Below are positions 10,369 through 31,708 of a stretch of DNA of 35,748 bases, in pieces. Made by a program: the position numbers and the translations under genes. Below the pieces are notes generated by a model. It made no database searches, was not told where the DNA came from, and saw only the letters and a program-made list of their open reading frames with translations. Numbering within the stretch: the stretch's first letter is position 1; the number at the start of each line of letters is the position of its first letter. This DNA is from Candidatus Cloacimonadota bacterium (GTDB lineage Bacteria > Cloacimonadota > Cloacimonadia > JGIOTU-2), in the NCBI GenBank assembly GCA_016932035.1, contig JAFGDR010000034.1:1-35748 (forward strand), written 5' to 3'.

Positions 10369-11421
10369 ATGAAAATAAAAAATAAACTCGGCATATCGCT
10401 TCTTTTAATTGTTTTTTTTACTGTAATTTTCTCACAGTATGCTTTTGCAGGTTCAGAAGCAACATGTATTTTCTTACTTATTGAACCAGGCTCACGTCCC
10501 AACGGACTTGGTCATTCCTATGTTTCTATTGCAGAAGGCGGCTTTGCATCCTGGTGGAATCCGGGTGGTCTTGCCTTCCAAAAAGATTCTGAACTCGGTC
10601 TTATGCATTCAAACTGGTTCGGAGATGTGATCGACGATATGTATTATGAATATCTTGGCTATGCACAATATTTCGAAGGTATTGGAACTGTCGGACTCAA
10701 TATTACATACATGACTTATGGAGAGCAGGAAGCATATAATGCTGCCGGTGATCCGTTGCAGAAATTCACAAGTTATGAAATCGCTGTAGGCGGATCGTAT
10801 GGAACAAAATTGAGTGAGAATCTCGGTATTGGTATAAATCTGAAGGGTGTGATAAGCGGTTTAGCACCTTTGATTGAAGAACTGATGGATGCTGAAGGAA
10901 CCGGTTATACATTTGTCGTTGATGTCGGGCTTCTTAAAAAGAATCTCTTTATCCCAAAACTCGATCTAGGTGTTAATATACAGAATTTTGGTCCTGATAT
11001 GAGTTATGCAAACTCAGAATCAAAGCAGCCAATGCCTCTCAATCTCAAACTGGGTCTTTCTTATAGAATTTTTGATGACAAATATAATAAACTCACTGTT
11101 ACAGGTGATATTAACAAGATGATGGTCAATACTGATCCGCTCTGGAAACGAATTTTTACATCCTGGGGTGATGACGGCTTTAAAAACGAACTTGATTCAA
11201 TGATCGAAAATATCGGTGTTGAGTATAAGTACTATAACCTCATCTCACTCCGCGTGGGATATGTGAACGACGTTGCTGGTCATATACAGGGTTTCTCCTT
11301 TGGTGGTGGCATCAGTTATGAGTTCTCTAAAGATAAAGAACTCTACTTTGACTTTGCGCTTCAGCCTGCCGGTGAACTCACTGCGAATAACAAGACCTTC
11401 TCACTAGGTGTATCATTCTAA
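10369..11421 (+). CDS. PorV/PorQ-family outer-membrane beta-barrel protein
   Basis: A 350-aa protein with a signal peptide (about residues 1-27, ending AFAG). The family hallmark follows directly: PGSRPNGLGHSYVSIAEG-x-x-x-x-WWNPGGLA, where the protein binds the start of an FadL/PorV-like barrel. The remainder is alternating beta-strand sequence with aromatic girdle residues and ends in SLGVSF, as outer-membrane barrels do. In Bacteroidota, PorV shuttles type IX secretion (T9SS) cargo to the cell-surface attachment complex; related UPF0164 proteins occur across FCB phyla. The next gene encodes a protease with a T9SS-like C-terminal sorting domain, which fits a cargo/shuttle pair. Start supported by AAAAGGAG 5-10 nt upstream of ATG 10369. 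Confidence 0.8.
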   Translation: MKIKNKLGISLLLIVFFTVIFSQYAFAGSEATCIFLLIEPGSRPNGLGHSYVSIAEGGFASWWNPGGLAFQKDSELGLMHSNWFGDVIDDMYYEYLGYAQYFEGIGTVGLNITYMTYGEQEAYNAAGDPLQKFTSYEIAVGGSYGTKLSENLGIGINLKGVISGLAPLIEELMDAEGTGYTFVVDVGLLKKNLFIPKLDLGVNIQNFGPDMSYANSESKQPMPLNLKLGLSYRIFDDKYNKLTVTGDINKMMVNTDPLWKRIFTSWGDDGFKNELDSMIENIGVEYKYYNLISLRVGYVNDVAGHIQGFSFGGGISYEFSKDKELYFDFALQPAGELTANNKTFSLGVSF

Positions 11422-11497: not shown

Positions 11498-14400
11498 ATG
11501 AAATTTTTAAAAACTCTCACCTATTCGGTATTGATTCTCATGATCCCGTTTATACTTCATTCAAAAACTTCTTCTTACCAGTTTAAAAAGCTCCCCGTTC
11601 AAGATATGCATAAACGACATGAGAAATTACAGAAACTTCCATATGAAGTTCAAAAAAATATATTTAATTCAGATGGTCTATCTGAAAAATTTGTCAGTCC
11701 ATCAAAGGATGGTTTCGAAGATGTCAATCTCTTGATCCTTCTTATTGATTTTATCCCGGATGATGATCCAAACACAACAGGGGACGGCACATTCGATTTT
11801 GGCGAATGGGATTATTTTGAGATCAATGGGGTAAGAGATTCAGTTCAAACAATTGGTTCTCCACCTCATGACTCGACCTTTTACCATCAGACAGTTAAAG
11901 CAATGCAGTATTACTATCAGGATGCGAGCCTTGGTATTTTAAATAGTTTCAATCCCTTACAGGAGAAGAATTTCCATTTTAAGATCTTCCCGCATCAAGC
12001 AGATACTTCCTATCGCATGCCTCAACAAATGGCATATTACTGGCCTGATACTGAAGATTATGACCTGAAATCCGATCGATTAATACAGTATTTTAAAGAT
12101 GCGATCACCACAGCAGACACGACAGAGTTTGAATATACTCCGGATATTATTTTTTCAGAATATAACCATATCATGATCATTCATGCCGGTTCAGATTGGC
12201 AGCATGATGTTTTCTATGATACTCCCTGTGATATCCCTTCGTGTTATTTTCATCTTAGAGATGACTCAATTGCTGTAAATGACAGCACATACTTTATAAA
12301 ATCCGGAGGTAACTCTCCGGAAACTATATCTCAGGATTTCTATAAAAATAATCATTACATTTATGGGTTCGGTTCTATTAATGCGGAGCTTTTCCATGAA
12401 TTCGGTCATGGTCTTGGTTTTGTAGATCTTTATGACACCTCAAACATGTATCCTGCTGTGGGATATTGGGACATCATGGACAGCGGAGGTTTCGGATCAG
12501 CAGTACTAATCGATACTCTCCAAACACCACCCGATTCTCTTGTTATCGAAGCAGTTCTGCCAACGCTGCCCTCTGCTTGGTCGCGTATTCTGATCTGGGG
12601 AGATGAATTTGAAGATGCAGGTAAATTTATTACAGTAGAAACTCCCTCAGAGATCACTGTTTCAGCAGCAGAATTCCCTAATGCTGTACATCCTCAGTTT
12701 GTAAAAATCCCTATCAATAATAAGGAATACTTTCTCATCGAAAACCGTGAAGTTGAACTTGATAATCTTGGAGCTCCTGTTATTAAAGTTGATGATATAA
12801 CCGGACGCGTTCCTCTCTACCCGATGAATCCTGAAACCGAACAAAACAACCATGAGTTCGATTATTTCCTTCCCACATACGACCCTTATCTTGAAGCAGA
12901 GACGAACGGTGGACTGTGCATATGGCATGTTGATGATTATGTTATCTATGATGAACTCGTTTGGATCGATGATGACTGGTTCACACGTTTCGATGCGAAT
13001 ATGGTAAATGCAAATTCGACACGACGGGGAGTAAAACTGATCGAAGCAGATGGTATCGAGGACATCGGTAATCCAAGCTCCTATTTCCCCTATGGAACAT
13101 GCTATGAACCCTTCTTCAAAACAAAACCTGGCACTTGGACTCCGAGTGATACAAACCGGTTCCACAATTATCAACTAGCTCCTCATACATTCCCAAACTC
13201 ATTCAGTAATGAATCGATCAACTCTTTGCTTGAAATCAATGACATCGGCAATTATGCGGTCAATATGTCTTTTACGTTTCAATATCAAACATATGATGAT
13301 GTTGTTTCCTATAAACCAGTAAAAAAATTCAATCCTGATCATGAACTGGTGCATTTTACAAACGATATGTTCGGATCACACATTCTTGTCACTGGCTCAG
13401 ATTCACTAATAATGATCCATGACGACCTTTTTGGTGATTATTCAAGCACTCTTCGAAAACCGCTTACACAACCACTCATGCTGTTCGGGAATCAAACGAA
13501 GAAATATATCATAACATGCCAGGAAGATTCACTTTCCTTTATAGATTTTAATATCATGCATTATCCTCCAATCACGTTTTATGGTATAACACTCGATCGA
13601 TGGATAACAGACTCACCTATTCAAATTTCCGATGATTTAATCATTGTTCCATCCGATTTCGGTTTGAAAAAAATATCGTTCAATGATGGATCTCCATTTG
13701 TTGTATCACAAGAAAACACGAACATTACCTCAATTGCATATGATCCAATTGCAAAAGAGTTGATCACACTAACACATGTTAACACCATAGCAGTTTTCGA
13801 CACGTCATTAGCTCTTATCGATGAATATGCTCTTCCCTCCTCTGCTGGTAATTATTATCCGATAGTTGAAAGTATCATGAAGGATTTCGTTCAATTGCAA
13901 AGAATATATGTACAGGATAATACAGGTTCGGTGTATCATATTTCAGATGGCTCGTTAACAAAGATCTTTGATGCTTTGACCTATCCATTGACCAACCCAT
14001 CCAACATTTCTCTTGGTGATGTGAATAATGACGGTACCCATGATATCGTTTTCACCGATGAGCACAGGATTGTTGTTCTTCAACCAAATGGTTCGTTCCT
14101 CAAGAAAACTCCGTTAGCTCCTTATAATGCTTCCTATTCTGCTTCAGTTACTCCAATTATTGGACAGAACTTTGTGGCTGAAGATATTTCATTGTATCTC
14201 CCGACTTCATCAAATTGGACACAGGCAATGGATAATACTTGTTCCATCCAGGCGATGTACAGTTTTGCTAACGGTCTCGCACTTGCGTCACCTTCAATTT
14301 CACAGCAGGAGGTATCATCGATCCTCTATCTTCCAGTCTCAGATTCCCTTGTGAAAATGTTTTCCTTCACCCAGAATGATCCTTCAGGATCTGATGTATA

Positions 14401-14740
14401 TTGGAATGGATATAAAAATGGACCTGCTCGAACAGCTTGTGTAACGACAATTTCTGAGGGCAAGCCGGACTCTTCTGCGACCTTTACCATCCTTACCTAT
14501 CCGAATCCTGCAGAATCGGGAGAGGTTAGAATAAGGGTTCGGTCAAACATGGACACGAATTCCTCCATAAAAATATACAATCTTGCTGCAGATATCCTTT
14601 TCAGCGATCAGCAACAGGTAACCGCATATATTAATAATGAATATGTATGGCCCATTGATAATGTGTCTTCAGGTGTGTATTTTGCAATGGTCAAAGTCGG
14701 TGGAAAAAGCGAATTAGTAAAAATAGGAATCACAAAATGA
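11498..14740 (+). CDS. Secreted M6-family zinc metallopeptidase with C-terminal T9SS-like sorting domain
   Basis: A 1080-aa exported protease. Order of parts: signal peptide (about 1-22); propeptide; peptidase domain with HEFGHGLGFVD, giving zinc ligands H300 and H304, catalytic E301 and D310 (HExxHxxGxxD, as in immune inhibitor A/M6), and a Met-turn at WDIMDSGG; a beta-propeller-like region with an FG-GAP/VCBS-type calcium motif (GDVNNDGTHDIVF) near 838-850; and a terminal domain from about 1000 beginning TYPNP and containing SSGVYF, ending VKIGITK. YPNP...GVYF is the T9SS type A sorting-domain pattern, so surface secretion via T9SS is inferred. It follows the porV-like gene by 76 nt and overlaps the next gene by 4 nt. 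No truncation seen. Substrate unknown. Confidence 0.88.
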   Translation: MKFLKTLTYSVLILMIPFILHSKTSSYQFKKLPVQDMHKRHEKLQKLPYEVQKNIFNSDGLSEKFVSPSKDGFEDVNLLILLIDFIPDDDPNTTGDGTFDFGEWDYFEINGVRDSVQTIGSPPHDSTFYHQTVKAMQYYYQDASLGILNSFNPLQEKNFHFKIFPHQADTSYRMPQQMAYYWPDTEDYDLKSDRLIQYFKDAITTADTTEFEYTPDIIFSEYNHIMIIHAGSDWQHDVFYDTPCDIPSCYFHLRDDSIAVNDSTYFIKSGGNSPETISQDFYKNNHYIYGFGSINAELFHEFGHGLGFVDLYDTSNMYPAVGYWDIMDSGGFGSAVLIDTLQTPPDSLVIEAVLPTLPSAWSRILIWGDEFEDAGKFITVETPSEITVSAAEFPNAVHPQFVKIPINNKEYFLIENREVELDNLGAPVIKVDDITGRVPLYPMNPETEQNNHEFDYFLPTYDPYLEAETNGGLCIWHVDDYVIYDELVWIDDDWFTRFDANMVNANSTRRGVKLIEADGIEDIGNPSSYFPYGTCYEPFFKTKPGTWTPSDTNRFHNYQLAPHTFPNSFSNESINSLLEINDIGNYAVNMSFTFQYQTYDDVVSYKPVKKFNPDHELVHFTNDMFGSHILVTGSDSLIMIHDDLFGDYSSTLRKPLTQPLMLFGNQTKKYIITCQEDSLSFIDFNIMHYPPITFYGITLDRWITDSPIQISDDLIIVPSDFGLKKISFNDGSPFVVSQENTNITSIAYDPIAKELITLTHVNTIAVFDTSLALIDEYALPSSAGNYYPIVESIMKDFVQLQRIYVQDNTGSVYHISDGSLTKIFDALTYPLTNPSNISLGDVNNDGTHDIVFTDEHRIVVLQPNGSFLKKTPLAPYNASYSASVTPIIGQNFVAEDISLYLPTSSNWTQAMDNTCSIQAMYSFANGLALASPSISQQEVSSILYLPVSDSLVKMFSFTQNDPSGSDVYWNGYKNGPARTACVTTISEGKPDSSATFTILTYPNPAESGEVRIRVRSNMDTNSSIKIYNLAADILFSDQQQVTAYINNEYVWPIDNVSSGVYFAMVKVGGKSELVKIGITK

Positions 14741-15429
14741 AACATAAAATAATTCTCATTGCACTTGTTTTAATTCTTTTATCAACAGCAATAGTCAATG
14801 CTGAGCAACGTAAATCAAAGGTTCTTGCTGCATTGATGTCACTGGCTGTTCCCGGTACTGGTGAACTTTATGCAAAGAACACAGCTTCGGGTTTGGCGAG
14901 TCTTGCAGCAGAAACCTTATTATGGCTGGGATATTACAGCTTCCGTGAACAAGCAAAATGGGCTGAAAACGATTATAAAAAATATGCCGAAGCATATTCA
15001 GGCACTCATCTCACAGACACCGAAGATGATTACTACACAATGCTCCAGGACTATTATTCAAGTACAGAATATAACAACTATGTGTACCTATACGCTCGAA
15101 ACGGCTTGTATTATGGAAACTGGACTCAGGATGAGTATGATCAATTTCTTGATACCTATCTTTATATTGGAAATGCAGCCTGGGATTGGGGCTCAACTGA
15201 TGTGTGGTACCGTTACGGAGAACTTCGTCGCGAGAAAAATAAATATCTCATTATCTCTAAATTCACCGTTGCAGGTATGCTGGTTAATCGTATTGTAAGT
15301 ATGATAAAAGCTGTTTATTCTGTTCATAAATATAACAAGGGAATTACAGAAGAAAATACTCTCTCGGTCAATTGTGGGTTTGATTACATGAAGCAGAGAT
15401 TTACCCTTTCTCTTGAGAAACGATTTTGA
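14737..15429 (+). CDS. DUF5683-like membrane protein of unknown function
   Basis: A 230-aa protein with an N-terminal signal or anchor (about residues 1-22). It is followed by the pattern KSKVLAALMSLAVPGTGELYAKN and a hydrophobic helix with the glycine-rich turn at about 35-65. This resembles the DUF5683 family (P-G-x-G-x-x-Y-x-x-K/N-x-x-x-G), common in FCB bacteria and of unknown function. The central part is rich in Tyr, Asp and Trp. It begins with an ATGA overlap with the protease gene, so it belongs to the same transcript as the porV-like gene and the sorted protease. A structural or envelope role is only inferred from that company. Confidence 0.6.
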   Translation: MKHKIILIALVLILLSTAIVNAEQRKSKVLAALMSLAVPGTGELYAKNTASGLASLAAETLLWLGYYSFREQAKWAENDYKKYAEAYSGTHLTDTEDDYYTMLQDYYSSTEYNNYVYLYARNGLYYGNWTQDEYDQFLDTYLYIGNAAWDWGSTDVWYRYGELRREKNKYLIISKFTVAGMLVNRIVSMIKAVYSVHKYNKGITEENTLSVNCGFDYMKQRFTLSLEKRF

Positions 15430-15431
15430 TA

Positions 15432-17018
15432 ATGAAAACGATCTTCATTGACGGCACTTCTGTCACGCTTGAACAGATCGATCTCGTTGCATCGCAAAAG
15501 GCAAGGGTAGCTCTTACTGAAGAAGCAAAGAAAAAGATACAAACATGCCGAAAATGTGTTGATGATATTATCAATAAGAATCAGGTTGTGTATGGAGTTA
15601 ATACGGGTTTTGGCGCATTTAAAGATAAACGTATCTCGCGAGATAAATTAAAGGAACTCCAACGTAATCTCATTATCAGCCACTCAACAGGTGTTGGTAA
15701 TTACTTACCCGTAAAGGTTGTTCGTGCTACTATGCTGCTCAGGATCAATTCCTTATCAAGCGGATATTCCGGCATCAGATTGACGACGATTGAGACCCTC
15801 ATTGAAATGCTGAATAAAGGCATTCATCCTGCAGTACCGGCACAGGGATCTGTTGGTGCAAGCGGAGATCTGGCACCGATCTCTCACATCATACTCGTTC
15901 TTTCACGAGGAGAAGATTGTGAAAGAGAAGAGTACAGCGGTCGTGTGATCATTGAAGAAAATACCGATCGCGATAATTATTCTGTGAAGACAATCTCTGG
16001 TATGAAAGCCATGCACAATGCAGGTATCGAAAGAGTTGTTCTCGATGCTAAAGAAGGTCTCGCTCTGAATAATGGCACAAATGTGATGACAGCAATCGCT
16101 GCGCTTGCAATGATCGATGCAAAACTTCTTCTTGAAAATGCGATTAAGATTTTTACTGCATCTTTAGAAGGACTTCGTGGTGTATCGGATGCATTTCAAC
16201 CAAAAATCCATGAACTACGAAGACAAAAAGGGCAAATCAACATTGCAAAAAAGATAATGAAATATATTGAAGGAAGCGCTTTGATTGATTCGAGAAAATC
16301 TGAAGTGCAGGACAGCTACTCGCTTCGGTGTTTCCCTCAAGTTGTCGGTCCTATCAAAGAAACCCTTGACTTTGCTGAAAATATCATTGAACGGGAAGCG
16401 AATGCGGTTACAGATAATCCGCTTATTATTCCTGATGCAGACAGACCGATCAAAGCGTTTTCAGGAGGAAATTTCCACGGAGAACCCATTGCACAGATTT
16501 GTGACTTTTGTAAGATAGCAATTGCTGAACTTGGTAATATTTCAGAACGAAGAATATTTAAACTGACATCGCAGTTCCTCAGTCATGGCCTGCCAAGCAT
16601 GCTCACAACTGAACCCGGTTTACAAAGCGGTATTATGATCCTCCAATACACTGCAGCAGCTCTTGTATCGGAAAACAAAGTACTTGCACATCCAGCAAGT
16701 GTGGATTCCATTCCTACAAGTGAGGATGTTGAAGATCATGTGTCCATGGGTACGATTGCTGCACGGCAGTTCAGAGAAATTCTTGAGAATGTTCGAAAGA
16801 TCATTGCGATCGAATATATCACTGCATGCCAGGCACTTGACTTGCGGCTTCGCATTGATTCTGATTTTAAAGATTGTGATCCAGAAAAGACTTTTGGAAA
16901 GAAAACCTACCGCATCTATCATAAGTTGAGAGAAGCTGGAGTTGAGTTTTGGGACAGGGATAAAGTTGCATATATTGACATTGAAAAAACACTTCGACTA
17001 ATTACTACCGAATTATAA
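15432..17018 (+). CDS. hutH: Histidine ammonia-lyase (MIO family)
   Basis: Predicted to deaminate L-histidine to trans-urocanate and ammonia. The 528-aa protein has the MIO cofactor triad Ala143-Ser144-Gly145 in GSVGASGDLAP and the YGVNTGFG loop. It keeps the Ser-His pair before TGVG (LIISHSTGVG) that marks histidine-type lyases. It also keeps YSLR, GGNFHGEP and a late VEDHVSMG block holding the glutamate usually associated with histidine specificity. ATG 15432 is preferred over the in-frame TTG 15426, which overlaps the previous stop. Compared with the usual HAL an extra segment occurs around residues 160-190 (GEDCEREEYSGR...). No hutU, hutI or hutG lie nearby. A second, divergent paralogue follows after 16 nt. 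Confidence 0.87.
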   Translation: MKTIFIDGTSVTLEQIDLVASQKARVALTEEAKKKIQTCRKCVDDIINKNQVVYGVNTGFGAFKDKRISRDKLKELQRNLIISHSTGVGNYLPVKVVRATMLLRINSLSSGYSGIRLTTIETLIEMLNKGIHPAVPAQGSVGASGDLAPISHIILVLSRGEDCEREEYSGRVIIEENTDRDNYSVKTISGMKAMHNAGIERVVLDAKEGLALNNGTNVMTAIAALAMIDAKLLLENAIKIFTASLEGLRGVSDAFQPKIHELRRQKGQINIAKKIMKYIEGSALIDSRKSEVQDSYSLRCFPQVVGPIKETLDFAENIIEREANAVTDNPLIIPDADRPIKAFSGGNFHGEPIAQICDFCKIAIAELGNISERRIFKLTSQFLSHGLPSMLTTEPGLQSGIMILQYTAAALVSENKVLAHPASVDSIPTSEDVEDHVSMGTIAARQFREILENVRKIIAIEYITACQALDLRLRIDSDFKDCDPEKTFGKKTYRIYHKLREAGVEFWDRDKVAYIDIEKTLRLITTEL

Positions 17019-17034
17019 TATAAAGGAGTTGACC

Positions 17035-18564
17035 ATGGCAATTGTTTTAAATGGTTATGATTTAACGATTGAGAAGGTCGTGAAAATAGCACGCGAAAAT
17101 GAGAAAGTAGAGATCCCGCAGGAATGTATCGAACGCATTAACAAATGCCGTGCAATGCTGGAAGAGAAAATCCAGGCACATGAGATCATGTATGGTGTTA
17201 ATACTGGTATAGGTGAATTTTCAGAAGTTGTCCTTGATGACGGACAGATTGAAGATTTCCAGCGTTATCTGATATACAATCATGCAGCCGGAATCGGTGA
17301 TCCGGCACCTATTGAGTATGTACGTGGCGCAATGGCAGGAAGGATCAATGTGCTGGTAAAAGGCAACTCCGGCTGTCGTCCGGAAATCCCTCTTACTCTT
17401 GCTGAAATGCTCAATAAAGGTGTTACTCCTTATGTTTGCCAGAAGGGTTCAGTCGGTGCGTGCGGAGACCTTGCTCCGATGTCACAGATCGCACTCCTAT
17501 TTCTTGGTGAAGGAAAAGCGTATTATCAAGGTGAACTATTTGAAGGAAAAGAAGCCATGGATAGAGCCGGCATTCCAATTCCCGGACTCAAGGCGCGAGA
17601 CGGACTTTCAGCCATAAACGGCTCAAACCTGCTTACTGCGATGAGTGCCCTATTACTTTATGATGCAAACCGATGGCTTAAACAGGCAGAAATTGCAGCT
17701 GCGATGTCACTCGAAGCACTCAAGGCAAATATGAAGCCTTATACTCCGCTCTTACATGAAGCCCGAGGATTCAAGGGTGCAATCCGCTGTGCGCGATCGA
17801 TCAACAAATTAGTAAAAGGCGGTGATCTTGCAGAAGGTAGAGTAAAATGCAAAGTTCAGGATGCGTACTCCATGAGATCGACCCCACAGGTTATTGGCGC
17901 TGCTCATGATGCACTGATTTATGCACGTTCACAGGTTGAGATCGAGTTGAACGGTGTTGGTGATAATCCAGTATTCTTCCCTGATAAAAGAATACAATTA
18001 TCCGGTGCCAATTTTCAGGGATCACCTGTTTCACTGCCGATGGATATGATCGGTGCAGCGATTACTATGGTTTCCGTAATGTCCGAACGTCGCATGAACA
18101 GATTGAATAATCCAGCACTCAGCGTGGGGCTGCCTGCTTTCCTGACAAAAGGGGCAGGTATGTTCTCAGGTTTAATGCTCAGCCAATACACCGCAGACAT
18201 GCAAATCGTAGAACAGAGAATCCTTTCCGTTCCTGCATCCATACAATCTATTCCAGCTGCTGCTGATCAGGAAGATTTTGTTTCAATGGGCATGAACACT
18301 GCCATTAAGAATTTCCAGATCATGGATAATGCATATGGCATACTCGGTATTGAATTCATGGCTGCAGCACAAGCGCTTGATTTCCGTGAAGAAGAATATT
18401 CATTCGGCGATGGTGTTACAAAAGCCAAAGAAGTAATCCGCCGATATGTTGACTTCCTCGATATAGATAGACCCCTCTATCCTGATCATACAAGAATGAA
18501 AGAGCTTGTTCGATCATGCGAAATTCTTGAAGAAGTCGAAAGTGTCGTAGGCAGCTTAGAATAG
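17035..18564 (+). CDS. Divergent MIO-family ammonia-lyase/aminomutase with Ala-Cys-Gly cofactor motif
   Basis: A 509-aa paralogue of the preceding lyase. ATG 17035 is set by AAGGAG at 17023-17028; an in-frame TTG at 17029 is rejected. It keeps YGVNTGIGEF, the His of YNHAAG, NGSN, the Y and R of QDAYSMR and the Gln-Glu-Asp near DQEDFVSMG. The MIO triad, however, is Ala142-Cys143-Gly144 (GSVGACGDLAP; TGC at 17461-17463), where the family almost always has Ser. GGNFHxEP is replaced by GANFQGSP and EDHVSM by EDFVSM. From established work on P. putida HAL, a Ser143-to-Cys mutant still forms an active enzyme, so activity is plausible. The changed pocket suggests a substrate other than histidine, or an aminomutase; this is inference. 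Full length, no frameshift. Confidence 0.8.
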   Translation: MAIVLNGYDLTIEKVVKIARENEKVEIPQECIERINKCRAMLEEKIQAHEIMYGVNTGIGEFSEVVLDDGQIEDFQRYLIYNHAAGIGDPAPIEYVRGAMAGRINVLVKGNSGCRPEIPLTLAEMLNKGVTPYVCQKGSVGACGDLAPMSQIALLFLGEGKAYYQGELFEGKEAMDRAGIPIPGLKARDGLSAINGSNLLTAMSALLLYDANRWLKQAEIAAAMSLEALKANMKPYTPLLHEARGFKGAIRCARSINKLVKGGDLAEGRVKCKVQDAYSMRSTPQVIGAAHDALIYARSQVEIELNGVGDNPVFFPDKRIQLSGANFQGSPVSLPMDMIGAAITMVSVMSERRMNRLNNPALSVGLPAFLTKGAGMFSGLMLSQYTADMQIVEQRILSVPASIQSIPAAADQEDFVSMGMNTAIKNFQIMDNAYGILGIEFMAAAQALDFREEEYSFGDGVTKAKEVIRRYVDFLDIDRPLYPDHTRMKELVRSCEILEEVESVVGSLE

Positions 18565-25712: not shown

Positions 25713-28339
25713 CAAAGAAACCTCCAGAAACAGCAGAACATACCCCTCTTATGAAGCAGTTCCTGAAAATAAAAAAGGAACAGCCGGATGCACTGCTTCT
25801 CTTTCGTATGGGAGATTTTTATGAAACCTTTTTTGAGGACGCAAAAACTGCTTCCAGACTGCTGGGGATAACACTAACCACTAGGGACAAGAAAAAGAAA
25901 AATCCGGTTCCTCTGGCAGGATTCCCTTATCATGCGCTTGAGAACTACCTGAAAAAACTACTTGATAATGGGCTAAAAGTTGCAATCTGCGAACAGGTCG
26001 AAGATCCTAAAAAAGCAAAGAAACTGGTTAAGAGAAAAATTGTTGAAGTAATCACTCCCGGAACGATTCTCGAAGAAAATTATCTCAAAGGAACTGGAAA
26101 CAACTACCTGAGTGCCGTGTATGAAGGGCAAAACAACTGCGGCATCGCTTCGATCGACATATCGACAGGTGAGTTTTCGTGCACAGAAGTTCCGACAGAA
26201 AGAATTGTTGATGAATTAGTCAGAGTCCATCCAACTGAAATATTGATTCCCGAATCGATGGAGTTCGACTTGCAAAAAAAGATCAAAGTCTTCTACACAC
26301 CTTCTTTTACCGAATATGAAACTTGGCGATATGATTTTCCTGAATCAACCGATATTCTTAAAAAACATTTTAAAGTTCTATCCCTCGATGGATTCGGTCT
26401 TTCGAACAAGAAACAGGCTGTGTGTGCTTCAGCTGCGATCCTATCATATATTATGGATTTAAAGGAAGGTGACCTCTCGCATATCAATGCCATTACATAC
26501 TATTCAAATGACCAGTTCGTGCAGGTTGATGCGCTTTCAAGACACAACCTTGAGCTGATTGAATCCATGCGAACACGTTCGAGATATGGCACTCTCCTTG
26601 AAGTTATAGATGAGACAAAAACTCCGATGGGTGGACGAAAACTGATCAACTGGATGCTCAATCCGCTCATGGAAAAGAAGTTGATCGACAAGCGGCTGGA
26701 TAGTGTTGAGGAATTACTGGAAAGAAGTAGTGCAAGAAATAATGTGATCGAGATTCTCCAGGAAATCGGAGATATCGAACGGATTATTAGTAAACTCGGA
26801 ACGAATAAAGCGTATCCTCGTGATTTGATAGCTTTGAAGAATTACCTTGCGCTTGCACAACCACTTGGTAGCCATATTGCAGGATCAAGTTCAGAGTACC
26901 TTCAGTCTCTGTATGCATCTATACAAAATTTCGATGAAGTAATACTTATTATTGAAAATGCCCTTATCGAGGAAGCTCCCCTCACACTGCAGGATGGCGG
27001 TATCATCAAACAAGGTTATAATGATGATCTGGACGAACTGAGAAGCAAGAGTAAAACAGGAAAAAAATGGATTGCACAGCTTGAACAAAAAGAGATAGAA
27101 CGTACAAACATCCCAAAATTGAGAGTGCGTTACAACAGTGTTTTCGGCTATTATATTGAGGTTACAAAATCTTATTTGGACAAAGTTCCTGTAGATTATA
27201 TACGAAAACAGACACTGGTCAATGCAGAACGTTTTATTACACCTGAACTAAAAGAATTCGAGAACCAGGTTCTCGGAGCAGAAGAACGAAGTACTCAACT
27301 CGAATATACACTTTTCCTTGAGATCAGGGATAAATTGAAAAACTTTATTCCCAGGTTTCAACAATTTTCAGAAGTCATCTCAACGCTTGATGTCTTAACC
27401 AATTTAGCTCATAATGCATTTTACAATCATTATATAAGACCTGAAATTCACAATGGGCATGAGATCTCGATCGAAGAAGGAAGGCATCCCGTAATTGAGA
27501 AGCTATCCGCCAGCAACGAATTTATACCCAATGATACATTGCTGAACAATACATCTGATAGAATACTCCTGATAACCGGACCGAATATGGCTGGGAAATC
27601 AACATATCTTCGTCAAATCGGATTGATCATTATCATGGCGCAGATGGGCTCATTTATTCCTGCCAAATCCGGGAAAATAGGAATAGTTGATAAAATTTTT
27701 ACCCGTGTAGGTGCCTCTGATAATCTTGCATTAGGGCAAAGCACATTCCTTGTTGAGATGATCGAAACTGCGAATATACTCCACAATGCAACACCGAGAA
27801 GTGTCGTACTCCTTGATGAAATCGGACGTGGAACGAGCACATTTGATGGATTAAGCATTGCATGGGCTGTTGTCGAATATCTCCATGAAAATAAAAAAGT
27901 TGCAGCGAAAACGCTTTTTGCTACACATTATCATGAGCTAACCGAACTTTCAAATGTATATAAAGGTGTAAAAAATTACAACATAACTGCCAAAGAGTAT
28001 CAAGACAGGATTATTTTCTTAAGGAAAGTAGTGCCTGGCAGTGCAGACCAGAGCTATGGTATCCAGGTGGCAAAGCTTGCAGGTATTCCTCAGAAGGTTA
28101 TTGAACGTGCCCAGGATATTCTTGAGGAATTAGAAAAAAGTGAATTCAATGAATCCAGCATTCTTGAGAAGACAAAAAGAAAGAAAGCAGAGATAAACCA
28201 GACATCATTTATCGAAGTGCTCTCACAAAAAACCAGTAAAGAAAGAGCTTTGATCGAGGAGTTGAAAAACCTGAATGTTGATGACCTCACCCCCCTTGAA
28301 GCAATTACATTTCTTTCACAATTGAAAGAAAAACTATAA
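25709..28339 (+). CDS. mutS: DNA mismatch repair protein MutS
   Basis: Mismatch-recognition ATPase of methyl-independent or -directed repair. The 876-aa protein has the mismatch-binding motif RMGDFYE (F37 and E39), connector, lever and clamp regions, and an ABC-type ATPase with Walker A GPNMAGKST (624-632), signature STFLVEM and Walker B LLDEIGRGTSTFDG. The following HYHEL histidine motif is also present. Full length and typical of MutS1. The start overlaps the SPOR-protein stop (ATGA 25709-25712). The gene ends 4 nt before the convergent sigma-factor gene. MutL is not in the window. Confidence 0.97.
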   Translation: MTKKPPETAEHTPLMKQFLKIKKEQPDALLLFRMGDFYETFFEDAKTASRLLGITLTTRDKKKKNPVPLAGFPYHALENYLKKLLDNGLKVAICEQVEDPKKAKKLVKRKIVEVITPGTILEENYLKGTGNNYLSAVYEGQNNCGIASIDISTGEFSCTEVPTERIVDELVRVHPTEILIPESMEFDLQKKIKVFYTPSFTEYETWRYDFPESTDILKKHFKVLSLDGFGLSNKKQAVCASAAILSYIMDLKEGDLSHINAITYYSNDQFVQVDALSRHNLELIESMRTRSRYGTLLEVIDETKTPMGGRKLINWMLNPLMEKKLIDKRLDSVEELLERSSARNNVIEILQEIGDIERIISKLGTNKAYPRDLIALKNYLALAQPLGSHIAGSSSEYLQSLYASIQNFDEVILIIENALIEEAPLTLQDGGIIKQGYNDDLDELRSKSKTGKKWIAQLEQKEIERTNIPKLRVRYNSVFGYYIEVTKSYLDKVPVDYIRKQTLVNAERFITPELKEFENQVLGAEERSTQLEYTLFLEIRDKLKNFIPRFQQFSEVISTLDVLTNLAHNAFYNHYIRPEIHNGHEISIEEGRHPVIEKLSASNEFIPNDTLLNNTSDRILLITGPNMAGKSTYLRQIGLIIIMAQMGSFIPAKSGKIGIVDKIFTRVGASDNLALGQSTFLVEMIETANILHNATPRSVVLLDEIGRGTSTFDGLSIAWAVVEYLHENKKVAAKTLFATHYHELTELSNVYKGVKNYNITAKEYQDRIIFLRKVVPGSADQSYGIQVAKLAGIPQKVIERAQDILEELEKSEFNESSILEKTKRKKAEINQTSFIEVLSQKTSKERALIEELKNLNVDDLTPLEAITFLSQLKEKL

Positions 28340-28343
28340 TACC

Positions 28344-29363
28344 CTATTCCTCTCTTTCTCCTAAAAGTTGTTTTATTTTCTCTAGTTCCTCATCAGGAAT
28401 TATATGAATCCCTGTTCCATCCTCAGGATATTTTTCAAGTAAGCGTAAAATCATCTCACCTTCTTCGACACTAACTTGAAAATGTTCTTGGTGAGGAGTA
28501 GGTGGCTGAAGTACTTTCAAGGCATTATTATCAATAGTAAATGTGAAATAAAATGATTCACTTTCATCTTGTTTATTTGTAAAAACCACATGTATTGTAT
28601 AAACAGAATCATCAAGATCAACCTCATATTCCAAAACTTCCTTAATCTCAAATTTGGGATGATAATCGCTTATATCTTTTTTTGAAAAATAATAAAACAT
28701 TTTATTCAGCGTATTGTTTTCTAAGTTTTTTTTGAATCTCAAGATGAATTTTCGTACAATATCATTTATTTGAGGACTTAGAATTTTCTTTGTTGCTATC
28801 ATTCCAAGCTTTTTGTATGTTTCAGCTTTGATCTTACGATTTATTCTCGACACTCTCTGTCTAAGTACTTCATTTGATTCCCCTGTAATCTCCACCATTG
28901 ATTTTAAATTTGTTTCACATTGGATATAAAGAATGTAAGTTTGAAGCTCGCTTTGAGTTAATTTACTCTTTGCAAAGTTAACTGCTTCTATGAGATCATC
29001 TCTTTCATCATTCACAAAATTAATACTTTCAGATATTTTAGTTTGGATTTCTTGAGCCACATTACCTTGCATAACTTGCTTTAATTTAATTTCTGCTTTT
29101 ATTTTATCAAAATATTGATGACAGTAGTTCTTGCTTGTATTTATGATCCATCCTTCATGGTTAACAGTTTCAATCTTATCTCGTTTTAGTAAGTAAGAAT
29201 AGATGGTTTGTGAAGCAATGTCTTCAGCAACATCGATGCTGCCAATCTTATACAGCCCTAAGTTATATGCAAGTTTGTGGTACCTTTTCAATTTATCAGC
29301 ATCAGTTTCAATTTTTTTTTTCATTTTTGAATTTTTTTGAGTGGTGTCGTCACAAATCTGCAT
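28344..29363 (-). CDS. ECF-type sigma-70 factor with long C-terminal extension
   Basis: A 339-aa (or 326-aa) protein. Region 2-like sequence runs from about residues 25 to 90: AEDIASQTIYSYLLKRD and GWIINTSKNYCHQYFDK, matching the AED-x-x-Q and W-x-x-x-x-A-x-N patterns of ECF factors. Region 4-like sequence (LTQSELQTYILY...SNEVLRQRVSRINRKIK) covers about 135-180. Residues about 195-339 are an extra, partly beta-rich extension ending in a charged helix; ECF factors with NTF2-like extensions exist, but I cannot confirm the fold. No anti-sigma gene is adjacent. Its first 11 codons from ATG 29361-29363 are the antisense of a repeated promoter-like element, so ATG 29322-29324 (MKKKIETDADKL) may be the true start. 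It opposes the small-gene array. Confidence 0.78.
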   Translation of the reverse strand: MQICDDTTQKNSKMKKKIETDADKLKRYHKLAYNLGLYKIGSIDVAEDIASQTIYSYLLKRDKIETVNHEGWIINTSKNYCHQYFDKIKAEIKLKQVMQGNVAQEIQTKISESINFVNDERDDLIEAVNFAKSKLTQSELQTYILYIQCETNLKSMVEITGESNEVLRQRVSRINRKIKAETYKKLGMIATKKILSPQINDIVRKFILRFKKNLENNTLNKMFYYFSKKDISDYHPKFEIKEVLEYEVDLDDSVYTIHVVFTNKQDESESFYFTFTIDNNALKVLQPPTPHQEHFQVSVEEGEMILRLLEKYPEDGTGIHIIPDEELEKIKQLLGEREE

Positions 29364-29386
29364 TTTTCATGATATAAAAGTAAATA
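29333..29386 (+). promoter_or_regulatory. Repeat element copy 1, candidate promoter of small gene 1
   Basis: A T-run (29333-29338), then GAGTGGTGTCGTCACAAATC (29339-29358), then a variable dinucleotide, ATTTTTCAT and GATAT at 29371, ending GTAAATA. The same order and phasing occur at 29704 and 30082. GTGGTG-to-GATAT distance is exactly 30 nt in all three copies. This is a rigid two-box arrangement, as in a promoter for an alternative sigma factor. This copy also covers the start of the opposing sigma gene. Confidence 0.7.
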
Positions 29387-29521
29387 TCTTGAATGATTTC
29401 AAGTCGATATTATCAATTTGTTCTCGCATCATTTGTTGCAGTTGTGTTTCATTATGATATTGATGTTTATTTCATGGTTTTAATAAAGTAATTTATAGTC
29501 TTGGACTGTTATATCATGAAA
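29365..29521. repeat. Separated 13-nt inverted repeat
   Basis: TTTCATGATATAA at 29365-29377 (inside repeat element copy 1) is matched by its exact reverse complement TTATATCATGAAA at 29509-29521. It could form a long-range stem in the leader of small gene 1, or supply a -10-like box for the - strand sigma gene. On the - strand TTGACA lies just upstream of it, but with a 13-nt spacing that is too short for a standard promoter. Confidence 0.45.
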
Positions 29522-29573
29522 TTATCTGTCAATATTTGATAATCTAATAATTTAATAAAGAAAGGAGTATTGC

Positions 29574-29669
29574 ATGATTATAAAAAAAATTTATGATGGT
29601 AATGGTGGTTTGTATACCGTAATAATATCCGATGGAAAAGTATTCCTCGGTCATGACAAAAAGAAATAG
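29574..29669 (+). CDS. Small paralogous protein 1 (31 aa), unknown function
   Basis: A 31-codon gene preceded by AAAGGAG 7 nt upstream of ATG 29574. It shares 22 of 31 positions with both other small proteins of this array, including DGNGG (8-12), VIIS (16-19) and GKVFLGH (21-27), and ends in KKK. Codons for conserved residues differ at wobble positions between copies, which argues for selection on protein. Predicted to be a small charged, beta-hairpin-like cytoplasmic peptide; no signal sequence. It begins 235 nt after repeat element copy 1. I do not recognise the family. Confidence 0.75.
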   Translation: MIIKKIYDGNGGLYTVIISDGKVFLGHDKKK

Positions 29670-29703
29670 CAATGACATTCTATTTATTTACCTAATTTAC
29701 TTA

Positions 29704-29757
29704 TTTTTTGAGTGGTGTCGTCACAAATCGGTATTTTTCACGATATATAAGTAAATA
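29704..29757 (+). promoter_or_regulatory. Repeat element copy 2, candidate promoter of small gene 2
   Basis: The T-run and GAGTGGTGTCGTCACAAATC core (29710-29729) are identical to copy 1. GATAT begins at 29742, again 30 nt after GTGGTG, followed by GTAAATA. It starts 35 nt after the stop of small gene 1. The surrounding sequence is not conserved, so the element itself is under constraint. Confidence 0.7.
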
Positions 29758-29945
29758 ATTTAAAATCTATAGTATGAACAGAATTAAATGAAAATTAAAA
29801 AATCAACCTAAACATTGTTTTTGCAATATGTTAATAATTTTGTTTAGCGGATTATAATTCAATGTTCTCGGTATGAATCTATGAAAAATGAATCTATTAA
29901 GTTGTTAAATAGTCTGAATAAAAATAAATCAATAAGGAGAACGAC

Positions 29946-30041
29946 ATGACTATTAAAAGAATTCACGATGGTAATGGAGGTGAATATATTGTAATTATTT
30001 CAGAAGGAAAAGTGTTTTTAGGTCATGAAAAGAAAAAGTAA
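29946..30041 (+). CDS. Small paralogous protein 2 (31 aa), unknown function
   Basis: A 31-codon gene with AAGGAG 7 nt before ATG 29946. It is identical to small protein 3 at 27 of its first 31 residues and to small protein 1 at 24 of 31. It starts MTIKRIHDGNGGEY and ends GHEKKK. It lies 236 nt after repeat element copy 2, matching the 235-nt spacing of unit 1. The leader between them has no ORF of note. Function unknown; coding status is supported by synonymous wobble changes relative to its paralogues. Confidence 0.77.
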   Translation: MTIKRIHDGNGGEYIVIISEGKVFLGHEKKK

Positions 30042-30081
30042 TTAACAATAATAAAGGAATCCATACCATTATTTTTTTCTA

Positions 30082-30131
30082 TTTTTTGAGTGGTGTCGTC
30101 ACAAATCGACATTATTTATGATATTATTAAA
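30082..30131 (+). promoter_or_regulatory. Repeat element copy 3, candidate promoter of the secreted protein and small gene 3
   Basis: T-run, then the GAGTGGTGTCGTCACAAATC core at 30088-30107, and GATAT at 30120, again 30 nt after GTGGTG. Downstream of GATAT it diverges from copies 1 and 2. It starts 41 nt after small gene 2 stops and lies 65 nt (core start to ATG) before the secreted 96-aa gene. Confidence 0.7.
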
Positions 30132-30152
30132 ACAACAAGAAAGGTGTAAGAC

Positions 30153-30443
30153 ATGAAAAAGAAAGTTTTAGCAATATGTTTAGTAACAGCCATCGTGCTA
30201 TTATTTAATTCTACTGTATATGCAATGACAGGCAATGAACTTCTAACCTTATGTAATCCAGATGATGCGGAAATCATTACACAATACCTTGATTTGAATA
30301 GTGATTATCCTGTTATCACAGAACCAATTTTAACCAGTTACAATAGTGACGATATTATCTATGAAGCCGCTGTTAATACTCCAAATGGACAAAAGTATAC
30401 TATCATTATTGTTAATGGCGTTATTCACGTTCTAAAAGTATAA
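30153..30443 (+). CDS. Secreted 96-aa protein with C-terminus resembling the small proteins
   Basis: A 96-aa protein with a clear signal peptide (residues 1-24, cleavage after VYA) and a 72-residue mature part. GAAAGGTG precedes the start. Residues 78-94 (NGQKYTIIIVNGVIHVL) align without gaps with residues 10-26 of the small proteins (N-G-x-x-Y-x-x-I-I-x-x-G), so the two may share one short beta-hairpin unit. One cysteine (C34) in the mature protein. Probably co-transcribed with small gene 3, 16 nt downstream. I recognise no family; function unknown. Confidence 0.72.
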   Translation: MKKKVLAICLVTAIVLLFNSTVYAMTGNELLTLCNPDDAEIITQYLDLNSDYPVITEPILTSYNSDDIIYEAAVNTPNGQKYTIIIVNGVIHVLKV

Positions 30444-30459
30444 TATATAAGGAGCAAAC

Positions 30460-30570
30460 ATGACTATTAAAAGAATTTATGATGGTAATGGTGGAGAATA
30501 TGTTGTGATCATTTCTGAAGGAAAGGTTTTCCTTGGACACGAAAGAAAATCAGCCGAGGTAAAGGCATAA
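30460..30570 (+). CDS. Small paralogous protein 3 (36 aa), unknown function
   Basis: A 36-codon gene with AAGGAG 6 nt before ATG 30460. It matches small protein 2 at 27 of 31 positions, then carries a 5-residue extension (AEVKA) in place of the KKK tail. It follows the secreted 96-aa gene by 16 nt and precedes the response-regulator gene by 17 nt, so it may be part of a three-gene transcript from repeat element copy 3. Function unknown. Confidence 0.77.
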   Translation: MTIKRIYDGNGGEYVVIISEGKVFLGHERKSAEVKA

Positions 30571-30587
30571 TATAATTCTTAAAATGT

Positions 30588-31115
30588 ATGAAAAAAATTA
30601 AGATATTGATCGTTGAAGATGAAGCTATAATCGCACTACATCTGAAAAATCTGGTTCTTCGTCTGGGAGACTACGAATGCGCATCTGTTGGAAGTGGGGA
30701 AGATGCTGTTGAGATATCAGAGACCATGAATCCTGATGTTGTATTCATGGATATTAATCTCAAAGGTTCCATCGACGGCATTGAAGCAGCGCGTCAAATT
30801 TGTAGAGAGAAATACATACCGATCGTTTTCGTTTCTGCATACAGCGATGAGGAGACGATCGAAACAGCCAAACAAGTCAATCCTGCAGGTTATCTCACAA
30901 AACCCATACATGCTCATGTTCTTCAAAGAACGTTGGAGTCTCTTTTAAAGGAAAATTTTGAAGAAGAAGTTATAGAAACCTACGAGGTACAGGATGTGAG
31001 CACTAAGGAGTATGGAGGTATTTTAGAGACCCCAATCATGGCACTCCCGCATTCATTCTTCACCCCGAAGAATGAATGCGGGAGCTCTCTCCCTGAATAT
31101 AGAAGAGTTGGATAA
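30588..31115 (+). CDS. Single-domain response regulator (CheY-like) with an odd C-terminal tail
   Basis: A 175-aa protein with a REC domain over about residues 1-122. Acidic pocket E10, D11; phospho-acceptor D55 (VVFMDINLKG); conserved S83 and K105 (LTKPIH). There is no DNA-binding output domain. Residues about 123-175 have no domain I recognise, and codons 153-166 are formed by a perfect inverted repeat (see next entry), suggesting the C-terminus was extended by an inserted element. No histidine kinase in the window. It starts 17 nt after small gene 3 and lacks a clear Shine-Dalgarno; an ATG at 30584 is out of frame. Confidence 0.85.
   Translation: MKKIKILIVEDEAIIALHLKNLVLRLGDYECASVGSGEDAVEISETMNPDVVFMDINLKGSIDGIEAARQICREKYIPIVFVSAYSDEETIETAKQVNPAGYLTKPIHAHVLQRTLESLLKENFEEEVIETYEVQDVSTKEYGGILETPIMALPHSFFTPKNECGSSLPEYRRVG
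31044..31084. repeat. Perfect 17-bp inverted repeat inside the response-regulator tail
   Basis: CTCCCGCATTCATTCTT (31044-31060) and AAGAATGAATGCGGGAG (31068-31084) pair perfectly around a 7-nt loop (CACCCCG). An alternative 5-bp stem GGGAG/CTCCC (31080-31093) uses the right arm. No U-tract follows, so it is not a standard terminator; it looks like a REP- or MITE-type palindrome inserted near the 3' end of the gene. Confidence 0.75.
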
Positions 31116-31143
31116 TCTTTTAGAAATCGAATAGTATTTATTC

Positions 31144-31172
31144 TTCTAAGATTGATTATATGTGGATATAAT
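31144..31172 (+). promoter_or_regulatory. Weak candidate promoter before aroQ
   Basis: A perfect TATAAT at 31167-31172 with a poor -35 (TTCTAA, 31144-31149, spacer 17) in the 158-nt gap between the response regulator and aroQ. Expected start near 31179, giving a leader of about 95 nt. Nothing else is seen in this gap. Confidence 0.3.
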
Positions 31173-31273
31173 GTATATTCAGAAAACTTAAAAAATAATT
31201 AACACCATTCTGGAGTGAATATATATAGCGCAAAATCTTGACACAAAATTTATTAAATTTGACCTCAATCCCT

Positions 31274-31708
31274 ATGAGTAAAAATATACTAATTATCAAC
31301 GGACCAAATCTCAATTTCCTGGGGAGATCGGAAATGAGTATCTATGGAAAAGAAACACTCGCTGAACTTCATTCAATAATATACCAGTGGATTTCAGAAC
31401 AGGAATGGCAAGCACGTTTCTTCCAGAGCAATAGCGAAGGTGAGATCATCGATTACATTCAAAATAATTTTGAATGGGTTGACGGAATTGTAATTAATCC
31501 CGCTGCACTCTCGCACACCAGCATTGCGATCTATGACTGCCTGAAATCGATCAGTGTGCCGGCTATTGAAGTTCATCTATCAAACATTTATCACAGGGAG
31601 GAATTCCGCAGAACCTCGATCACAGGGCTGGCATGCAGGAAAGTGATTGCAGGTTTAGGAGTACAGGGATACATCGAAGCATTAGAGGATCTCCAGAAAA
31701 TTCTTTAA
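31274..31708 (+). CDS. aroQ: 3-dehydroquinate dehydratase, type II
   Basis: Dehydrates 3-dehydroquinate to 3-dehydroshikimate in the shikimate pathway. The 144-aa protein has the type II signature INGPNLNFLGRSE...IYG with the catalytic Tyr, FFQSNSEGEIIDYIQ, INPAALSHTSIA (usually NPGAYTHTS; catalytic His kept) and EVHLSNIYHREEFRRTS. Length is typical (about 145). ATG 31274 is chosen because TTG 31238 would add 12 residues before the conserved N-terminus; no convincing Shine-Dalgarno is visible for either. The stop overlaps the next ATG (TAATG). Confidence 0.93.
   Translation: MSKNILIINGPNLNFLGRSEMSIYGKETLAELHSIIYQWISEQEWQARFFQSNSEGEIIDYIQNNFEWVDGIVINPAALSHTSIAIYDCLKSISVPAIEVHLSNIYHREEFRRTSITGLACRKVIAGLGVQGYIEALEDLQKIL

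What the first reader, a model, noticed from the sequence alone, without database searches (positions are those of the whole stretch)
29333..30570. Tandem array of three tiny paralogous genes facing an ECF-type sigma factor
Three 31-36-codon genes with good Shine-Dalgarnos share 22 of 31 positions and differ mainly at synonymous wobble bases (for example in the codons for VIIS and GKVFLGH). That is strong evidence of selection on the proteins. They sit on the strand opposite an adjacent extended sigma factor, each unit starting with the same promoter-like element. I know no described system made of an ECF factor plus repeated 31-aa cytoplasmic peptides and a secreted relative. Inference: the sigma drives the array, and the peptides may act as regulators, anti-sigma-like factors or effectors.
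Basis: partly seen in the sequence, partly recalled or inferred. Interest (0 to 1): 0.9.

Follow-up and report, generated by a model that had tools for sequence, protein, structure and literature searches.

The report
Sigma-factor switch with repeated tiny peptides
In bacteria of the phylum Cloacimonadota, the tiny genes belong to a conserved, apparently undescribed gene switch: a sigma factor, its own promoter motif, a small secreted protein, 24-36-residue peptides and a response regulator, which together probably turn on surface proteins exported by the type IX secretion system.

Summary
Three 31-36-codon genes share 22 of 31 residues and are under strong purifying selection (pooled pS 0.70, pN 0.11). 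Three near-identical promoter-like elements face away from a divergent ECF-type sigma gene.

The array is a local expansion of a module found across Cloacimonadota: sigma (C-terminal extension, possibly NTF2-like) | divergent element | small secreted protein | micropeptide (24 aa elsewhere, 31-36 aa in this genus) | REC-only response regulator. The micropeptide resembles the secreted protein's C-terminal hairpin. At 19 readable orthologous loci, micropeptide and REC occur together (15) or are both missing (4).

The element (T-tract, GTGGTGtCGTCAC, usually 17 nt, GATAT) lies beside 19 of 20 readable sigma orthologues. Strong genome-wide matches track the sigma (Fisher p 3e-13); two same-genus genomes without the sigma have none. 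Distal copies precede large secreted proteins, mostly with type IX sorting tails; this genome has SprA and PorV.

Best reading: an ECF regulon for type IX cargo and its own regulators. The micropeptides' role is inferred: probably cytoplasmic modulators acting with REC on the sigma. Closest analogues are PorXY-SigP and PhyR-NepR-EcfG; membership in either is not met. There are no transcription, translation or binding data.

The parts
28344..29324 (-). ECF-type sigma factor, 326 aa, with a C-terminal extension of about 140 residues (helices + four-stranded sheet + helices)
   Evidence: weak NCBIfam sigma-70/ECF matches, ECF chains top the Foldseek list, homologues in 41 of 125 Cloacimonadota genomes
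29333..29384 (+). promoter-like element 1, beside the sigma start, facing the array
   Evidence: (E 6.8e-16)
29574..29669 (+). micropeptide gene 1, 31 aa (MIIKKIYDGNGGLYTVIISDGKVFLGHDKKK)
29704..29755 (+). promoter-like element 2
   Evidence: (E 1.9e-15)
29946..30041 (+). micropeptide gene 2, 31 aa (MTIKRIHDGNGGEYIVIISEGKVFLGHEKKK)
30082..30132 (+). promoter-like element 3, directly upstream of the secreted gene; the counterpart of the single element in other families
   Evidence: (E 3.4e-12)
30153..30443 (+). small secreted protein, 96 aa, signal peptide plus compact domain ending in a beta-hairpin that resembles the micropeptides
   Evidence: pLDDT 84; no Pfam, NCBIfam or significant PDB fold match
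30460..30570 (+). micropeptide gene 3, 36 aa, the ancestral operon position; orthologues in G002, G004 and G008
30588..31115 (+). REC-only response regulator with conserved acidic pocket, Asp55 and Lys105; homologues end earlier, at the stem-loop
   Evidence: Pfam Response_reg 1e-22; best NCBIfam match is the PhyR REC region
31044..31084 (.). perfect 18-nt stem-loop overlapping the end of the REC gene, candidate operon terminator
   Evidence: I2; the G008 copy is followed by a T run

Best explanation
The locus is the control centre of an ECF-type sigma regulon in Cloacimonadota. The sigma, whose C-terminal extension may be NTF2-like, reads the element (T-tract, GTGGTGtCGTCAC as -35 region, 17-nt spacer, GATAT as -10). 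From there it transcribes its divergent operon (small secreted protein, micropeptide, REC) and distant genes for large surface proteins with type IX sorting tails. The micropeptides are cytoplasmic beta-hairpin modulators that act together with the phosphorylatable REC protein on the sigma, possibly by docking on its beta-rich C-terminal extension, as a minimal partner switch. In this genome the micropeptide gene has been duplicated twice with its own element, which would raise its dose in a feedback loop. Shown by sequence: module, element, co-occurrence, selection, cargo association. Inferred: recognition of the element by the sigma (about 0.85). Hypothesis only: direct action of peptide and REC on the sigma (about 0.4).
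For: Element beside 19 of 20 readable sigma orthologues, in fixed orientation and with a 17-nt gap in 25 of 28 copies. Strong element hits track the sigma across 125 genomes (Fisher p 3e-13); sigma-less G005 and G007 of the same genus have none. Distal elements precede secreted, mostly type IX-sorted proteins; type IX machinery is present. Purifying selection on the peptides. Micropeptide and REC present together at 15 loci, both absent at 4. Foldseek places the sigma among ECF factors, with SigG1 (SnoaL extension) on top.
Against: No transcription, translation or binding data. The element model was trained on sigma-adjacent copies, so only the distal copies and the genomes without sigma are independent tests. 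G090 and G115 have strong elements but no detected sigma (77% and 86% complete). The sigma has no Pfam match and only sub-threshold NCBIfam matches. The four loci without micropeptide and REC are about two clades. A distant homologue (G104) has REC without a micropeptide.
Confidence: 0.6

Rival explanations
1. Same regulon, but the micropeptides act with the secreted protein rather than the sigma: they are spare copies of its C-terminal hairpin that cap or chaperone that aggregation-prone strand before export.
For: The micropeptide follows the secreted gene directly and resembles its C-terminal hairpin.
Against: G009, G100, G105 and G107 keep the secreted protein without a micropeptide, while micropeptide and REC come and go together. 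In the window two extra copies exist without an extra secreted gene.
Confidence: 0.2
2. Same regulon, but the hairpin is a signal: the secreted protein reports the state of the envelope or of export, and the micropeptides are its intracellular counterpart, comparable in role to PorA in the PorXY-SigP pathway.
For: A small secreted protein is encoded beside almost every member of the sigma family, also distant ones, so it is the most constant partner. PorA, a surface protein, feeds into PorXY-SigP signalling (PMC7712824).
Against: No receptor, importer or sensor kinase is encoded beside the locus; no homology to PorA was tested or seen.
Confidence: 0.2
3. The element is read by another sigma factor or is bound by another regulator, and the divergent sigma gene is merely its neighbour or target.
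For: The conserved stretch is longer than a usual -35 box and contains an imperfect palindrome (GTG....CAC); recognition by this sigma is not shown.
Against: Tracking of the sigma across genomes, including absence in two same-genus genomes; ECF-like constant spacing.
Confidence: 0.12
4. The small ORFs are leader peptides or translation-coupling devices whose sequence does not matter.
For: They lie upstream of longer genes; decayed copies of the unit exist in G002 and G008.
Against: Strong amino-acid-level constraint and a conserved hairpin sequence across families.
Confidence: 0.05

Closest known systems
PorXY-SigP (with PorA), control of type IX secretion in Porphyromonas gingivalis (PMC4800418, PMC7712824)
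   Same: An ECF sigma factor and a response regulator linked to type IX secretion; a small surface protein feeds into the pathway.
   Different: Here the response regulator is REC-only (PorX has a PglZ domain), the genes form one locus, the element marks cargo genes rather than secretion-machine genes in the sites read, and there are micropeptides.
PhyR-NepR-EcfG general stress response of Alphaproteobacteria (PMC4814048)
   Same: ECF sigma, a small cytoplasmic protein and a REC-containing protein encoded together; the PhyR REC region is the best NCBIfam match of the window's REC protein.
   Different: No sigma-like domain on the REC protein; the micropeptide is 24-36 aa and matches no known family; the regulon read here is surface proteins.
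ECF factors with SnoaL/NTF2-like C-terminal extensions (ECF41, ECF56; PMC8999054, PMC7730460)
   Same: sigma2-sigma4 followed by a 120-150 residue extension; SigG1 of ECF56 (7qh5) is the top Foldseek hit.
   Different: No SnoaL family match by sequence; the fold match is weak; no micropeptide or REC partner is described in the passages read.

Membership tests
ECF sigma factor | sigma2 and sigma4 regions without sigma3, as in ECF structures | tested here: met
   Model with two helical domains; ECF chains dominate the Foldseek list, although at E above 0.001; homologues match ECF models at up to 8.8e-8
ECF sigma factor | Score above a curated family cut-off | tested here: not met
   Pfam none; NCBIfam best 1.5e-4 for the window protein, below all cut-offs
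ECF41/ECF56 with SnoaL extension | SnoaL/NTF2-like C-terminal domain | tested here: inconclusive
   Foldseek hits to SigG1, TraM and AtzH, TM-score to target 0.21-0.51, E 0.005-0.3; no Pfam SnoaL match
Any published ECF group | Match to the ECF classification models | not testable with these tools
   Those models are not among the libraries offered
PorXY-SigP | PorX: REC plus PglZ domain | tested here: not met
   REC only; NF052313 (PorX) matches the REC part only, 49.7 bits against cut-off 300
PorXY-SigP | Sigma acts on genes of the type IX machine | tested here: inconclusive
   Elements read here precede cargo genes; machine genes were not systematically checked
PhyR-NepR-EcfG | PhyR: sigma-like domain fused to REC | tested here: not met
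   REC protein matches only positions 138-248 of the PhyR model
PhyR-NepR-EcfG | NepR anti-sigma protein | tested here: not met
   No Pfam match for any of the three peptides
Type IX secretion cargo (regulon genes) | C-terminal Por_Secre_tail or FlgD-like sorting domain, with the machinery in the genome | tested here: met
   Seven of nine first genes after distal elements; SprA and PorV present

The most novel reading that the evidence does not exclude
A 24-36 residue stand-alone beta-hairpin, resembling the tail of a co-transcribed secreted protein, is one of the smallest natural regulators of a sigma factor. It works with a REC-only protein as a three-part switch, and its tandem duplication tunes the regulon that decorates the cell surface through type IX secretion.
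Probability: 0.25. Interest if true: 0.88.

Novelty: new variant of a known kind. Interest (0 to 1): 0.72.

Why it matters
It defines, from sequence alone, a sigma factor, its probable promoter sequence and its regulon in a largely uncultured phylum, and links them to type IX cargo outside the Bacteroidota, where type IX regulation has been studied. It adds a conserved family of 24-36-residue proteins that annotation pipelines are likely to skip. If they bind the sigma or the REC protein they would be unusually small transcription regulators, and the locus is compact enough to rebuild and test in a laboratory host.

Tried and rejected
RNA family: no Rfam match in 28300-31300. Sigma-54 promoter: considered because the first element reads GTCAC-N5-TGCAT, rejected because the TGC part is not conserved between copies. 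Mobile or decoy repeat: rejected because of the near-constant spacing, the orientation towards genes and the tracking of the sigma. Known family for the small proteins: none in Pfam and, for the secreted protein, none in NCBIfam; no PDB fold match at E <= 0.001 for the secreted protein. The genome-contig scan found only 8 loci, far fewer than the phylum search, so it says little about spread outside the phylum. A classical -35/-10 pair for the sigma gene was not resolved. Literature searches returned no description of this system among the titles and abstracts listed; PMC8542988 on Ca. Celaenobacter does not contain the word 'sigma' in its main text.

Full report
Observation. Twenty-two of the first 31 residues are identical in the three peptides. 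Pooled over the three pairs, synonymous differences are 38 of 54 sites and non-synonymous 22 of 207. The pair W2-W3 has 13 synonymous and 4 non-synonymous differences. Such short genes give imprecise ratios, but every computable pair in the window and genus has omega at or below 0.20. The 24-aa homologues in other families also show pS above pN in every pair compared. Translation of the peptides is therefore very likely, although not observed.

Organism. The nearest named relatives are Cloacimonadota metagenome-assembled genomes, including Candidatus Celaenobacter antarcticus.

The module. Same-genus relatives G002, G004 and G008 keep sigma, element, secreted protein of about 94 aa, a 36-aa peptide and a REC protein; in G003 and G006 the contigs end too early to tell. 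In G008 the sigma and the operon are about 6 kb apart, with large secreted proteins between them. The REC gene is found only in genomes with the sigma (not in G005 and G007). A search of 125 Cloacimonadota genomes found the sigma family in 41. In the other families the layout recurs with a 24-aa peptide such as MKKIYEDQKYFIIIIDGEIYIIKK. This peptide resembles the last residues of the secreted protein before it (EYIIIVVDGTIYIILK). The 31-36-aa peptides of the window are taken as the genus version because they hold the same operon position and the same kind of hairpin. A profile search with the peptides also finds the secreted proteins of relatives (the window's secreted protein was one of the profile's own rows). 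More distant sigma homologues also have, divergent from them, a small secreted protein with a hairpin-like end.

Micropeptide and REC. At 19 orthologous loci that can be read beyond the secreted gene, 15 have both and 4 (G009, G100, G105, G107) have neither. The Fisher value computed for 14 against 4 is 3e-4; G081 was added afterwards. The four negatives are about two clades, so this is suggestive, not a firm test. REC without a micropeptide occurs beside a distant homologue in G104.

The element. Twenty-eight sigma-adjacent and distal copies share the GTGG-N4-GTCAC core and a GATAT-type box, most with a T-tract in front; the gap is 17 nt in 25 and 15 nt in 3 (the -10 box was located by pattern, so the 2-nt shift in those three could be a matter of definition). 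Such a fixed gap is what an ECF promoter would show. A sequence model of twelve sigma-adjacent copies was searched against 125 genomes. Of 24 genomes with E <= 1e-4, 18 have a strong sigma orthologue, and of the 101 others 4 do (Fisher p 3e-13; table typed in). Of the six exceptions, four have a fragment or a more distant homologue of the sigma, and two (G090, G115) have none detected. G005 and G007, same genus, 93% and 96% complete, lack the sigma and have no strong element.

Regulon. Distal elements were followed in 20 fetched regions. For 15 of them the first sizeable gene was read; nearly all begin with a signal peptide by inspection. Nine first-gene proteins were sent to Pfam: seven match Por_Secre_tail and/or FlgD_ig, some slightly below the curated cut-off; one (L102) is a truncated frame with FG-GAP repeats; one (L113) has no match. 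Background: 103 sorting-tail matches in this genome and about 150 in some relatives, about 5-6% of genes if roughly one gene per kilobase is assumed. A binomial value of 1e-5 for 7 of 15 uses 6%. The sites were not a random sample. The genome has SprA and the window itself has PorV and a type IX-dependent M6-like protein, so the type IX context is real.

Structure. The sigma model (mean pLDDT 72, pTM 0.40) shows sigma2 and sigma4 helices and, after residue 184, two helices, a four-stranded sheet and two helices. Foldseek's best match is SigG1 of Streptomyces tsukubaensis, an ECF factor with a SnoaL domain, followed mainly by ECF factors and, for the extension, NTF2-like proteins. None reaches E 0.001, so the NTF2-like label is a lead. 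The secreted protein's model is better (pLDDT 84) and has no PDB match at E <= 0.001.

Mechanism. Shown by sequence: the module, the element and its link to the sigma by genome, constraint on the peptides, association of the element with type IX cargo. Inferred: the sigma reads the element. Hypothesis: the micropeptide and REC control the sigma, by analogy with PhyR-NepR-EcfG (PMC4814048) and with PorX, which binds SigP directly (PMC4800418). C-terminal extensions of ECF factors are known to regulate them (PMC8999054), which offers a possible docking site for a hairpin. Extra units in the window would raise peptide dose. G002 and G008 carry decayed copies of such units, so the extra copies are not always kept.

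Comparison. The system works like a sigma-plus-response-regulator circuit, but fails defining features of both nearest systems: no PglZ domain, no PhyR sigma-like domain, no NepR match. It is filed as a new variant of ECF regulation, with an unexplained peptide component.

Noticed in passing
window 10369-11421 and 11498-14740: PorV/PorQ family protein (NCBIfam E 8e-78) followed by a type IX-dependent M6-like protein with a sorting tail.
   Followed up: partly
window 15426-17018 and 17029-18564: Two adjacent genes that both look like histidine/phenylalanine ammonia-lyase or aminomutase family members, by eye from the translation.
   Followed up: no
L014 about 1650-1745; L015 minus strand about 9711-9610: Decayed copies of the micropeptide unit after element 1 in G002 and G008, with stops or frame loss.
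   Followed up: partly
window + strand about 29524-29533; G002, G003, G008 upstream of the sigma gene: TTGACAG about 200 nt upstream of the sigma start, on the sigma's strand, is conserved in four genomes of the genus; possibly the sigma gene's own promoter, which would make its leader overlap the array's first leader.
   Followed up: partly
L061-L064, L066, L068: Distant sigma homologues have a small divergent secreted protein and, in some, a different CGTC-containing motif in front of it, perhaps separate promoter specificities.
   Followed up: partly
G090:C346:8417-8752 and L138 (G084:C115): Runs of two to four element copies in tandem upstream of one gene.
   Followed up: no
L101, L104, L106, L108: Several distal elements are followed by a short stretch like GGTGATAAAATG with a very short frame before the first real gene; possibly leader ORFs or remnants of a copied unit.
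   Followed up: no
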